Positions 7,844 to 11,681 of a stretch of 64,000 bases of DNA are shown here, one piece after another. The translations under genes were made by a program, and so were the position numbers. The DNA lies in assembly GCF_900142525.1 (NCBI RefSeq), contig NZ_FRBD01000007.1, positions 88,326-152,325 of the forward strand, in the 5' to 3' direction. Each line of letters begins with the position of its first letter. The stretch's first letter is position 1. The notes beneath the pieces are model-generated. The model was not told the origin of the DNA. It ran no database searches and worked only from the letters and a program-made list of their open reading frames with translations. This DNA comes from Xylanibacter ruminicola. Its GTDB lineage: Bacteria; Bacteroidota; Bacteroidia; Bacteroidales; Bacteroidaceae.

Positions 7844-8248
7844 TTAATCGTAGGTTACGTCGTCATCATCGCCGCCACCGCCGCCGGTGTTACCACCTCC
7901 TGAGGTGTTTCCACCACCGCTGGTGTTGCCGCACTGGTTCTGATTCTGACTACCACCCTGCTCACCGTTCTGGTTGCCGCTCTCGGGGTCTTCGATGTCG
8001 CCGCTGTCGCCAGAGGTTACGCGCTTCAGCACGTTGCCATCCTCGTCAAGACAGGTAATCTGGATTGAGGTATTCTTCAGCTCTTCCTTCACCTCAGTGT
8101 TAGGAGTGAAGATGATACGACGCACACTGATCAGACCGGTCTTTACATCCTCCAGGTTCTCTACCGCCTTAGAGCGAACACCGAAACGCATGGTTCCCAG
8201 TCTGGGCAGCGGAACCGAGTGACCCTCGGTGGCCCAGGTACGGGACAC
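7844..8248 (-). pseudogene. N-terminally truncated HU-family DNA-binding protein with Gly/Asp-rich tail
   Basis: The reading frame gives 134 residues. The middle, GTMRFGVRSKAVENLEDV and then RRIIFTPNTEVKEELKNTSI, is the C-terminal half of the large HU-related proteins of Bacteroidales. It ends in a low-complexity tail rich in Gly, Asn and Asp (GGGNTGGGGGDDDDVTYD). A stop codon (TGA) sits directly before the first possible start, a GTG at 8248, so roughly the first 60 residues of the HU fold, which carry the dimer helices, are absent. The upstream DNA is already the 3' end of the lipoprotein gene at 8269. I therefore call a relic, although a short product cannot be excluded. Confidence 0.7.
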
Positions 8249-9288: not shown

Positions 9289-9298
9289 ATTTTTTTTT

Positions 9299-9390
9299 AG
9301 TCCGACTATGTTGTTTTGTTGTTAGCGCGGGCGTAACCTTATAATAATCAAATAGTTAATTATGATAACAACAAAACAATAACACGGGAC
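9299..9390. repeat. Inverted repeat with TTGTTTTGTTGTTA arms upstream of smalltalk
   Basis: Arms of 26 bp at 9299-9324 and 9365-9390 agree at 20 positions, including a continuous 14-bp core, and both begin with AGTCC in arm orientation. The 40-bp centre is AT-rich. The same arm core forms another hairpin at 13557-13640. It lies directly before the smalltalk start, so it could fold in that mRNA leader or bind a protein. Confidence 0.7.
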
Positions 9391-9437
9391 TAAAATAGTT
9401 TTTTTTCGAGAGAATCCCAGTGAAGTGTATTTATCTC

Positions 9438-9537
9438 AAGACCTACCATAATCTCTAGAAATGCTTTTGTACACAGGGGCTGAGACATGGTAGGTCTTGT
9501 GTTGAGACCTACCATAGACTTACCATAGACCTACCAT
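9438..9537. repeat. Left 100-bp inverted repeat of the VapE gene, with 11-bp iterons
   Basis: The core GACCTACCAT occurs at 9440-9449 and 9528-9537 and at 9506-9515, with a one-base variant at 9517-9526, and inverted at 9487-9496. The last three direct copies are spaced exactly 11 bp, one helical turn. The whole block is a near-complete reverse copy of 10942-11039 on the other side of VapE, including the central GTACACAGGG. It lies upstream of the VapE promoter. Iterons next to an initiator-like ATPase suggest a binding array or replication origin, but that is inference. Confidence 0.85.
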
Positions 9538-9594
9538 GCAAAAATAGGGGGAAATTAACATTAACAGAATTTAAGAAAATAATAACGGAAAATA

Positions 9595-9626
9595 TTTGTA
9601 ACCGCAAAATTAAAGCTGTACCTTTG
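9595..9626 (+). promoter_or_regulatory. Promoter of the VapE-like gene
   Basis: TTTG at 9595-9598 and TACCTTTG at 9619-9626 are 20 bp apart, a perfect Bacteroidetes promoter. Transcription would start near 9634 and leave a leader of about 95 bases. The promoter lies 58 bp inside the left iteron repeat, so proteins bound there could control it. Confidence 0.75.
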
Positions 9627-9727
9627 CACGCCGGAAATGAAAACACGCACGCAGGATTACTAGCTAGCGGTATGAAAAGTGCATGCGATCTTAACCACAT
9701 TTATTAATAACTGAGAATACTTAAATA

Positions 9728-10942
9728 ATGGAAGAAATGAAAGTTAACGGAGAGACCCTTGCGGCCTCTCAGAAGGATGCGCTCGTCATCGAGCAGTACC
9801 TTAGTGAGAATTATCTGTTTCGCAGAAACGTGCTTAACAGGAAGGTGGAGTTTGTTGACATCAGGGTTACAACCATTGACGGTAAACCTGTGTGGAAAGC
9901 CCTTACTCAAGAGGAAATCCTGAGTATCGTGATTCGTGCTAAGCGCGAACATGTGATGGATAAGGGCAATCCTAAAACGGAAATTATGGAGTACGTCCAG
10001 TCAGCCGAAGTCGTAGCCTACAACCCAATTGCAGATTTCCTGAATAATCTGCCCCAATGGGATGGTCAGAACCACGTAGGCAAGCTTTTGAACCGCATTC
10101 CTGGCCTCAGCACGGAGATGCACAACTATCTTGCCATCTGGCTTAGGGCTATGGTGGCCCATTGGTTGCAGAAGGATATGCTGCACGGAAACGAATGCGT
10201 ACCTATGTTTATAGGCTCGCAGGGATGCGGAAAGACTACCTTTGTGCGTCGCCTTCTGCCTCCTTTTCTGCGTTGTTTTTATCTGGACCACTTCAACGTA
10301 ACCAACAAGTTTGATAGAGATATGGCCCTGTCGGATTGTCTGGTGGTTAATCTCGACGAGGTTGATGTCTATACGCGTCGCCAATGGACAGCCCTGAAAC
10401 AGATCCTGTCGTTGAATAAGGTTAATGGTCGACCTGTTTTTGGTCGAACCCAGCAGGATCGACTTCGTTTTGCATCGTTCGTAGCTACTACCAACAATCA
10501 TCATCCTCTTCAGGATGCCACAGGTAGCCGTCGATTCCTCTGCTTCACCATCCCTGATGGCGAGATGATCGACAATGAGGGCGAGATTGACTACGAGCAG
10601 CTTTATGCTCAGCTGGTTTACGAGCTTAATGTACTGAACGAGCCTTATTGGTACAGCAATTCCGAAGTGGCACGTATTCAGGAACTTAACATGGAGTATA
10701 TGGACCAGAAGGACATAGCCGACATCGTTAAGACCTGTCTGCGCAAGCCCAAAGAGGGCGAGGCGGTTAAGAAGATGAGCTGTTCTGAGATTCTCTCTTT
10801 GATTCAGCAGGATTTCCCATCAATCAGGAACACCCATAGTAATAAGGTGTGCTTGGGTAATGCCCTGCTCGAACTTGGCTACGAATTCAAGAAACACTCG
10901 AATGTGTCGGTATACAATGTGGTTCCGCTCAAGGCTGCCTGA
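9728..10942 (+). CDS. VapE/VirE-type P-loop ATPase with DUF3874-like C-terminus
   Basis: This is a 404-residue helicase-like ATPase of the virulence-associated E group, common in mobile and phage-satellite elements and usually linked to a primase. Walker A is GSQGCGKTT (about residue 163), Walker B is CLVVNLDEVD, and a later ATTNNHHPLQDATGSRRFL block supplies the sensor asparagine and arginine finger. The last 70 residues resemble the DUF3874 domain found on Bacteroidales members. The primase-like N-terminal domain of longer VirE proteins is absent and I see no primase gene beside it. The stop codon TGA overlaps the first copy of the right-hand iteron, so the repeat begins within the gene. 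Role is probably DNA replication or remodelling of a small element. Confidence 0.85.
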   Translation: MEEMKVNGETLAASQKDALVIEQYLSENYLFRRNVLNRKVEFVDIRVTTIDGKPVWKALTQEEILSIVIRAKREHVMDKGNPKTEIMEYVQSAEVVAYNPIADFLNNLPQWDGQNHVGKLLNRIPGLSTEMHNYLAIWLRAMVAHWLQKDMLHGNECVPMFIGSQGCGKTTFVRRLLPPFLRCFYLDHFNVTNKFDRDMALSDCLVVNLDEVDVYTRRQWTALKQILSLNKVNGRPVFGRTQQDRLRFASFVATTNNHHPLQDATGSRRFLCFTIPDGEMIDNEGEIDYEQLYAQLVYELNVLNEPYWYSNSEVARIQELNMEYMDQKDIADIVKTCLRKPKEGEAVKKMSCSEILSLIQQDFPSIRNTHSNKVCLGNALLELGYEFKKHSNVSVYNVVPLKAA

Positions 10943-11039
10943 TGGTAGGTCTATGGTAGGTCTGTGGTAGGTCTCACGCCAAGACCTACCATGCCGCAGG
11001 CCCTGTGTACAAGGGCGTTTCGAGAGATTATGGTAAGTG
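10942..11039. repeat. Right 98-bp inverted repeat of the VapE gene, with 11-bp iterons
   Basis: ATGGTAGGTC occurs at 10942-10951 and 10953-10962, with GTGGTAGGTC at 10964-10973, again at 11-bp spacing. An inverted GACCTACCAT is at 10983-10992 and a variant ATGGTAAGTG at 11030-11039. Apart from scattered substitutions it mirrors 9438-9537 in order and spacing. It separates VapE from the DUF6078-like gene. Confidence 0.85.
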
Positions 11040-11060
11040 TGATATAAAAAAAGAGAAACT

Positions 11061-11492
11061 ATGAATAAGATTAATTACAACGAAGTTCCTTATGGATTTA
11101 TGCATTGTCTTGAGGCTGATTGCCCCATGGCTAGTCATTGTTTGCGCCAGATGGCGATGCAAGCTGTTCCCAAAAATCAGATAAGTGTTCCGATCATTAA
11201 TCCGCAGCTCCCTGAGCCATCAGAGAATTGCAAGTACTATCGCAGCGATGAACCTCAGGTTTATGGCCGTGGGTTCACCAATATGCAGAAGCAGATGCTA
11301 CCTAGTCAATATGATACCTTCCGCTATCGACTGATAGGCAAGTTTGGACGTAACCCCTACTTTGATCGTCGCAAGGGGGCAAGGCTTTGCTCACCAAGCG
11401 AAATCAAAGTGGTGAAATCGGCGCTAAAAGAAATAGGCCTCGAACACTTGGAATTCGATGCCTATGAGAAGCATCTCTGCTGGTTCGACTAA
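11061..11492 (+). CDS. DUF6078-like small cysteine-rich protein
   Basis: The product has 143 residues and no signal peptide. Its first 60 residues hold a cysteine cluster (HCLEADCP, SHCLRQ, NCKYYR) that could bind a metal. The remainder is basic and aromatic, with the segment RYRLIGKFGRNPYFDRRKG. It resembles proteins that carry the DUF6078 name in Bacteroidetes, whose function is unknown. It follows VapE in the same direction beyond the right iteron repeat, with no clear promoter of its own, so read-through from VapE is plausible. A DNA- or RNA-related role is suggested only by context. Confidence 0.7.
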   Translation: MNKINYNEVPYGFMHCLEADCPMASHCLRQMAMQAVPKNQISVPIINPQLPEPSENCKYYRSDEPQVYGRGFTNMQKQMLPSQYDTFRYRLIGKFGRNPYFDRRKGARLCSPSEIKVVKSALKEIGLEHLEFDAYEKHLCWFD

Positions 11493-11522: not shown

Positions 11523-11578
11523 GGAGTCCTCTGCCTAGAGGACTCCAGTCCTTTAGTAGGAGGACTCGAGTCCTTTAG
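11523..11578. repeat. Palindromic direct repeats after the DUF6078-like gene
   Basis: GGAGTCCTCT at 11523-11532 pairs with AGAGGACTCC at 11537-11546 across four bases. GAGGACTCnAGTCCTTTAG then occurs twice in tandem at 11538-11556 and 11560-11578, 22 bp apart and differing in one base. The second copy contains the 14-base perfect palindrome at 11561-11574. The arrangement resembles an operator or iteron array more than a terminator, as no T-run follows. Confidence 0.75.
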
Positions 11579-11681
11579 GCAGAGGATTAATCATTATGCT
11601 ATTTGTACGCGGTTATAAACTCTATCTTACTTTTAATCATCATTTCTCTGCTTTATTTTTACCAATGTTTATGTTCTTTTA

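What the first reader, a model, noticed from the sequence alone, without database searches (positions are those of the whole stretch)
9438..11039. VapE-type ATPase gene enclosed by about 100-bp inverted repeats made of 11-bp iterons
Seen: blocks 9438-9537 and 10942-11039 are near-complete reverse copies, each with GACCTACCAT units at exact 11-bp spacing plus inverted units and a central GTACACAGGG. The right block starts inside the VapE stop codon. Known: VapE/VirE ATPases belong to mobile elements and are initiator- or helicase-like. Inference: a self-contained replicating or transposing cassette, or an autoregulated initiator with its origin. I know of no description of this arrangement.
Basis: partly seen in the sequence, partly recalled or inferred. 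Interest (0 to 1): 0.78.

Follow-up and report, generated by a model that had tools for sequence, protein, structure and literature searches.

The report
Helicase gene between its own origins
In Prevotella and related bacteria a lone gene for a predicted helicase sits between two inverted blocks of short DNA repeats that the protein's tail likely reads, one amino acid tracking one DNA letter, and gene-less pairs of the same blocks are scattered through the genomes, so the whole is likely a small spreading element built around a replication starter instead of a transposase.

Summary
Window 9439-9537 and 10942-11040 are inverted blocks ("arms"): three 11-bp iterons, one inverted iteron, a short core and an outer iteron, around a 404-aa VapE ATPase. 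It is one of a large family: inverted repeats flank 75 of 80 testable VapE loci, mostly Prevotella and Prevotellaceae MAGs. The iteron differs between elements but tends to match between an element's two arms. It tracks VapE's C-terminal domain (partial r 0.51) and hardly the rest (0.10, -0.11). Residue 392 predicts iteron base 3 (His to G, Asn to T); 7 of 7 base changes on a tree of the rest of the protein coincide with a change at 392, and the rule held in 26 of 28 further His/Asn elements. The nearest solved relative is a staphylococcal-island Rep helicase on DNA. Arm doublets without VapE are dispersed in related genomes, often with the iteron of a full element there. Best reading: a self-loading initiator helicase reading its own origin-like arms, in a mobile element with non-autonomous dependents. 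Binding, origin activity and movement are inferred; no target duplication or two-sided empty site was found.

The parts
9439..9537 (-). Left arm, read outwards on the minus strand: three direct iterons, an inverted iteron, core, outer iteron
   Evidence: covariance model hit 9425-9542, E 1.2e-17 (the model was built with this arm in it)
9439..9449 (-). Outer iteron of the left arm (AGACCTACCAT on +)
9469..9478 (-). Core of the left arm, GTACACAGGG on + (family form near CCCCTTTGTACAAAGGC)
   Evidence: arms aligned
9487..9497 (-). Inverted iteron of the left arm; would form a stem-loop with iteron 9505-9515
9505..9537 (-). Three direct iterons, period 11 bp, left arm
9619..9626 (+). TACCTTTG, fits the Bacteroidota -7 promoter motif TAnnTTTG (motif recalled), between the left arm and VapE
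   Evidence: such a motif lies there in 79 of 80 loci, 7.6 expected from shuffling
9728..10942 (+). VapE-like AAA+ ATPase, 404 aa: N-terminal part 1-104, ATPase 105-325, C-terminal domain 326-404 that likely reads the iterons (predicted helix 370-382; residues 389 and 392 in or beside the predicted strands 387-390 and 393-400)
   Evidence: PF05272 E 1.8e-31, DUF3874 E 1.9e-6; model; 7pds; covariation
10942..11040 (+). Right arm: three direct iterons, inverted iteron, core CCCTGTGTACAAGGGC, outer iteron; begins on the last base of the VapE stop codon
   Evidence: covariance model hit 10937-11054, E 2.6e-16 (the model was built with this arm in it)
10942..10974 (+). Three direct iterons, period 11 bp, right arm
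10982..10992 (+). Inverted iteron of the right arm
11030..11040 (+). Outer, degenerate iteron of the right arm (ATGGTAAGTGT)
11061..11492 (+). DUF6078 gene, 143 aa; four cysteines invariant in 36 aligned relatives; linked partner present in 39 of 83 loci
   Evidence: PF19555 E 3.6e-32
11525..11586 (.). Array of 22-bp-period palindromes of the AGGACTCnAGTCCT type after DUF6078; possibly part of the unit
   Evidence: arrays of this kind beside other copies

Best explanation
The gene encodes a VapE-family ATPase, predicted to be a helicase, that likely starts DNA replication at its own flanking arms, which its C-terminal domain likely reads, and gene plus arms are the core of an element that likely spreads in Prevotella-like genomes together with gene-less arm doublets. 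Proposed steps. (1) The C-terminal domain binds the 9-bp iterons of both arms; residues 389 and 392 specify iteron bases 2 and 3. This is inferred from covariation; no binding was measured. (2) Hexamers load on each arm as SaPI Rep does on its origin and open the DNA, the conserved core next to the iterons being the likely opening or entry site (inferred). (3) Two outward-facing origins around a short gene would over-replicate the segment, and the extra copies are joined into new intergenic sites by an unidentified nuclease or by host recombination, with DUF6078 a possible helper (inferred and weakest step). (4) Doublets, which carry both arms but no gene, are served in trans by a full element with the same iteron (inferred from matching iterons in the same genome). 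Shown directly: the arms, their wide conservation, the iteron/C-terminus covariation, the dispersed doublets, and near-identical units at unrelated loci.
Against: No binding, unwinding, replication or movement was measured. No target-site duplication and no two-sided empty site was found. No nuclease, integrase or transposase domain was recognised in the window's two proteins. DUF6078 is absent from 44 of 83 loci (some cut by contig ends) and has no recognised fold. The arms are internal, not the outer ends, in the best-mapped units. Fourteen of 83 loci have arms that the model does not recognise, with direct iterons but no inverted one in those I could read. Three of 25 Asn392 elements in the first set and 2 of 9 in the second carry G. 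The iteron frame was set by a pattern that admits only G or T at base 2, G, T or A at base 3 and A at base 4, so those limits are by construction. The tree test treats branches as equal. Several doublets are at orthologous sites in two genomes, so part of the dispersal is old and vertical. One G198 doublet matches only L241, whose VapE is a 133-aa fragment; some doublets in G226 and G189 have no fetched full element of their exact iteron, and for G275 and G334 no full element was fetched in that comparison.
Confidence: 0.6

Rival explanations
1. The arms are operators: VapE or DUF6078 binds them only to regulate its own expression, and dispersed doublets are old copies or a regulon.
For: The left arm lies just upstream of the promoter motif (79 of 80 loci) and the right arm in the leader of DUF6078 in 34 of 83 loci.
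Against: The right arm follows the VapE stop codon also where no DUF6078 gene follows. Doublets carry two facing arms, and near-identical units sit at unrelated loci. The protein's nearest solved relatives are replication helicases.
Confidence: 0.15
2. The arms and doublets are moved by an unrelated transposase encoded elsewhere; VapE is a passenger that happens to bind the same ends.
For: No recombinase was recognised in the window's two proteins, and doublets look like MITEs. A MITE without known partner is described in Porphyromonas gingivalis (BrickBuilt, PMC4596501, abstract and passages).
Against: Iteron type differs between elements of one genome, which one shared transposase would not explain.
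Confidence: 0.2
3. It is a decayed replication module of a phage satellite or plasmid left in the chromosome.
For: PHROGs hits are phage helicases and primases; the fold is that of a staphylococcal-island Rep; distant VapE proteins occur in phages and plasmids.
Against: No close relative on plasmids (78 records, all under 60% identity, top-ranked 32.0%), phages (364 records, all under 60%, top-ranked 33.7%) or IMG/VR (none). Conservation of arms, promoter motif and specificity code over the family shows selection, not decay.
Confidence: 0.05

Closest known systems
SaPI Rep / PriRep and SCCmec Cch2 self-loading initiator helicases with iteron origins
   Same: AAA+ helicase; iterons directly downstream of the gene; C-terminal domain reads them (there reported from experiment, PMC7581432 passages; here by covariation); closest solved structure (that 7pds is the SaPI1 protein is recalled)
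   Different: Here the origin-like block stands on both sides in inverted copies, the dispersed unit has no room for a primase, integrase or island, and gene-less doublets are scattered
RAYT / REPIN system
   Same: A gene flanked by inverted repeats, with dispersed gene-less doublets of the same repeat in the same genome (general form recalled; papers PMC3116915 and PMC8049555 seen as search listing only)
   Different: RAYT is a Y1 HUH transposase (recalled); here the gene is a VapE ATPase, the repeats are helically phased iterons with a matched specificity code, and the doublets read are 164-549 bp
BrickBuilt MITE of Porphyromonas gingivalis (PMC4596501)
   Same: Intergenic non-autonomous repeat in another Bacteroidales genus with an array of 23-nt repeats; the 22-bp palindrome arrays here recall it
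   Different: A term search of its main text finds no helicase or VirE; the abstract and passages read describe no iteron arms and no autonomous partner
AAV Rep and its inverted terminal repeats
   Same: Inverted repeats with tandem initiator-binding sites around the gene of an SF3-type helicase (recalled); AAV Rep among weak Foldseek hits (E 0.05 to 0.3)
   Different: No nicking HUH domain recognised here; a bacterial chromosomal element; arms are not mapped as termini. A resemblance, not kinship

Membership tests
Self-loading initiator helicases (SaPI Rep kind) | AAA+/VapE helicase domain with intact motifs | tested here: met
Self-loading initiator helicases (SaPI Rep kind) | C-terminal domain specific for iterons | tested here: met
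   By covariation only; no binding assay
Self-loading initiator helicases (SaPI Rep kind) | Iterons directly downstream of the gene | tested here: met
   Right arm on the stop codon
Self-loading initiator helicases (SaPI Rep kind) | Iterons act as a replication origin | not testable with these tools
   Needs a replication assay
Phage-inducible island / satellite | Integrase and satellite genes in the unit | tested here: not met
   The dispersed 2.33-kb units L238 and L239 hold VapE and a DUF6078 frame that ends at the unit's end, which leaves no room for them; wider neighbourhoods were not annotated
RAYT / REPIN | Gene flanked by inverted repeats with dispersed doublets | tested here: met
RAYT / REPIN | Y1 HUH transposase encoded | tested here: not met
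   Pfam finds only VapE-type, DUF5906, DUF3874 and DUF6078 families and PHROGs only helicase, primase, clamp-loader and unknown families in the window's two proteins
Insertion sequence / MITE | Transposase and target-site duplication | tested here: inconclusive
   No transposase recognised in the window's two proteins; no duplication seen at mapped ends, but one end is variable and no two-sided empty site was found
Known anti-phage system | Match to PADLOC models | tested here: not met
   0 families for both proteins

The most novel reading that the evidence does not exclude
A new class of bacterial mobile element whose only constant gene is a replication-initiator helicase: it copies itself by firing two inverted origins that enclose its own gene, without a dedicated transposase or integrase, keeps a REPIN-like population of gene-less doublets, and changes address by a two-residue, two-base recognition code that switches protein and repeats together.
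Probability: 0.4. Interest if true: 0.92.

Novelty: new variant of a known kind. Interest (0 to 1): 0.78.

Why it matters
VapE proteins of this kind are abundant and unexplained: at least 6657 non-redundant relatives at E 0.001 or better, from a capped list of candidates. This gives one branch a likely job, a DNA target and a readable code that can be tested with purified protein and short oligos. If movement is confirmed, it would show that a replication initiator alone can sustain a family of selfish elements and their parasites inside chromosomes, which bears on how transposition can work without a transposase.

Tried and rejected
RNA function of the arms: rejected as the main reading. The left arm lies upstream of the promoter motif, and Rfam gives no credible match (mir-2068 at 39.5 bits against a cut-off of 99, on the palindrome array, and one match at E 0.34). 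The strong covariation of the arm hairpin (8 of 10 pairs changed on both sides) is also expected from matched inverted binding sites, so it does not show RNA.

Arms as features of all VapE genes: rejected. Six longer or divergent VapE loci of the same genome show no inverted repeat above shuffles (0 of 6) and no arm at E 0.01 (best 0.014).

Empty sites. The DUF4153 neighbour of the window is found without VapE or DUF6078 within the fetched flanks (up to 1.5 kb) in all 29 other-genome loci fetched, but the left neighbour is not conserved there. At the C26 deleted copy, G334 and G255 keep the tRNA-Leu side with no element, while the other side is not comparable. For L223, C37 and C36 no two-sided site. 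Long VapE and DUF6078 partners elsewhere in the genome were not followed.

A literature search for this arrangement found nothing: in the held open-access library only; one search was swamped by 'vape' in the e-cigarette sense. Searches for the SaPI Rep structure paper did not find it.

Full report
1. The observation. The inverted blocks are real. Each arm reads, from the gene outwards: three 11-bp iterons (9-mer GGTAGGTCT), a 7-nt spacer, one inverted iteron, a core (CCCTGTGTACAAGGG on the right), and an outer iteron. The arm alignment scores 133 against 25 for the best of 20 shuffles. Between left arm and gene lies a TAnnTTTG motif (the Bacteroidota promoter motif, recalled). The gene is a 404-aa VapE-like ATPase (PF05272) with a weak DUF3874 C-terminus, followed by a DUF6078 gene.

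2. Not a single case. The own genome holds two more short VapE genes (58% and 54% identity over most of the protein). Each stands between its own inverted arms but with another iteron (C37: GGGAGAGAT, C13: GGGAGGTTT), and a deleted copy (C26) keeps both arms with a VapE remnant in a 64-codon frame between them. A genome scan found 147 encoded relatives, of which the best 80 were kept, by their titles mostly Prevotella and Prevotellaceae MAGs, many from ruminants. Of these 80 plus the 3 own copies, 80 had enough flank and 75 of 80 show an inverted repeat around the gene scoring more than 1.3 times the best of 20 shuffles (in L048 the best pair lies outside the arms). A covariance model of 54 arms finds arms in 69 of 83 loci, on both sides in 62, none in the wrong orientation (two short reverse hits under 80 nt inside left arms, in L065 and L076, were left out). 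The model was built from arms of these loci, so this is not independent. The 14 loci it misses carry direct iterons without the inverted one, as far as I could read them.

3. Iterons and protein evolve together. Across elements the iteron changes (GGGAGAGAT, GTTAGGTCT, GTGAGGGAT, GGGAGGTCT, GGTAGGTCT and others), but the two arms of one element agree better than chance (6.34 against 4.67 of 9; 0 of 2000 permutations, 62 loci). Of 83 loci, 82 had right flank, 77 gave an iteron, and 65 of those have a protein in the 70-row alignment. The frame of the 9-mer was set by a pattern, so A at base 4, G or T at base 2 and no C at base 3 hold by construction. In these 65, iteron distance correlates with the distance of residues 326-404 (Spearman 0.56; partial 0.51), and hardly, once the other parts are held, with residues 1-104 (0.10) or 105-325 (-0.11). 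Among 1075 residue-by-base tests on a tree of residues 1-325, the best is residue 392 against base 3: all 7 base changes fall on branches where residue 392 changes (9 changes, 128 branches taken as equal, p 3.8e-10). His goes with G (39 of 39), Asn with T (22 of 25), Arg with G (1). Residue 389 adds base 2: EH-GG 30 of 31, DH-TG 8 of 8, DN-TT 9 of 9, and His, Gln or Val with Asn gives GT in 5 of 5; the other 12 are rarer pairs with mixed results. The window protein has K389 and N392 and its iteron has GT, in line with Asn-T. In the predicted model residue 392 lies between two strands (387-390 and 393-400) that follow helix 370-382; a winged-helix reading head is my inference.

4. Test on further elements. 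From 51 VapE reading-frame hits in later-fetched stretches I dropped 13 that are at least 95% identical to the first set, 1 without right flank and 7 without a called iteron. In the remaining 30: His-G 19 of 19, Asn-T 7 and Asn-G 2, and one each of Gly and Lys with G. Some of the 30 are near relatives of one another. A natural switch stands out. L223 and L228 are the same unit in two genomes (90% DNA identity over 2.35 kb), with VapE cores 97.8% identical, but S389 and N392 go with GTTAGGGAG in one, E389 and H392 with GGGAGGGAG in the other. The genome of L223 also holds two doublets with GTTAGGGAG (L250, L251) beside six with the GGGAGGGA type.

5. Dispersed doublets and units. Searching with the C26 copy showed arms far from any VapE. 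They are doublets: two facing arms, 164-549 bp in all. In 57 sources read with the model, 37 are doublets, 14 have arms more than 1 kb apart and 6 are single or cut. Of the 37 doublets, 36 have no VapE or DUF6078 frame in the fetched stretch and C26 has its remnant; of the 11 wide pairs checked, 9 hold a long VapE frame, L184 a 300-aa one and L241 only a 133-aa fragment with DUF6078. In 16 genomes of the genus, chosen by hand, 13 have arms and 3 near-complete genomes have none. In 301 genomes of the family, drawn evenly, 30 have arms at E 1e-5, in 9 of 30 genera; only 12 candidates per genome were scored, so this is a lower bound. In at least one arm, doublets carry exactly the 9-mer of a full element's arm in G045 (4 of 4, GTGAAGAGT), G198 (2 of 3; the third matches L241) and G138 (4 of 6); in G226 and G189 some have no fetched partner. 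Two full units of G198 are 94.6% identical over 2331 bp at unrelated loci; the unit runs from a palindrome array through arm, VapE and arm to the end of the DUF6078 frame. Doublet units of about 515 bp with palindrome arrays recur at several loci in G349, G138 and G226 with a sharp common end. No target-site duplication is visible. Some doublets are at the same place in two genomes (L172/L175, L174/L177, L219/L227), so they also persist by descent.

7. Mechanism. The most economical reading is an initiator helicase reading its own two origin-like arms (reading well supported by covariation, origin activity inferred) within an element that has spread (supported by near-identical units at unrelated loci) and that likely serves doublets in trans (supported by matching iterons). 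How copies are cut and joined is unknown. DUF6078 (four cysteines invariant in 36 sequences, perhaps zinc-binding) is present in 39 of 83 loci, 34 right after the right arm and 5 between left arm and VapE, so it is a linked helper at most.

8. Novelty. The parts resemble known kinds (Rep plus iterons; REPIN-like doublets), but I found no description of them together: searches and 114 of an open-access library gave none, which is weak evidence of absence. I rate it a new variant of a known kind; if movement without a recombinase is confirmed it would be categorically new.

Noticed in passing
window 11525-11586; L008, L010, L171-L177, L217-L251: Arrays of palindromes at 22-bp period (TTCCCAnnnTGGGAA, AGTCCG/AGTCCT and TCCGAAAGTAAT types) stand beside many arms, and the TTCCC type also matches many places away from them in related genomes. 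Lag-22 arrays in 34 of 155 flanks against 8 of 155 for any of eight other lags; a left array in 23 of 38 loci with DUF6078 and 9 of 42 without.
   Followed up: partly
L172-L177 and L010: Doublets and the deleted copy often start, by eye, right after the T-tract of an intrinsic terminator of a neighbouring gene or tRNA. Terminator-adjacent insertion may be a target preference.
   Followed up: no
G000:C35:164982-165410 (L022): A second DUF6078 50% identical to the window's, with no arm detected in its fetched flanks.
   Followed up: no
window 9295-9324 and 9366-9395: AT-rich inverted repeat of 30 nt (80%) just left of the left arm.
   Followed up: no
window 7844-8248, minus strand: A frame matching only the end of the HU-HIG DNA-binding domain, perhaps a truncated gene.
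   Followed up: no
L244, L247 (genome G045, one contig); L233 (G226) and L243 (G198): Long doublets (425-549 bp) carry extra sequence between the arms, by eye with its own repeats: doublets seem to pick up cargo.
   Followed up: no
L241 (G198:C5): Arm pair 1.43 kb wide enclosing a DUF6078 frame and only a 133-aa VapE fragment, with the same iteron as doublet L243: an intermediate between full element and doublet.
   Followed up: partly
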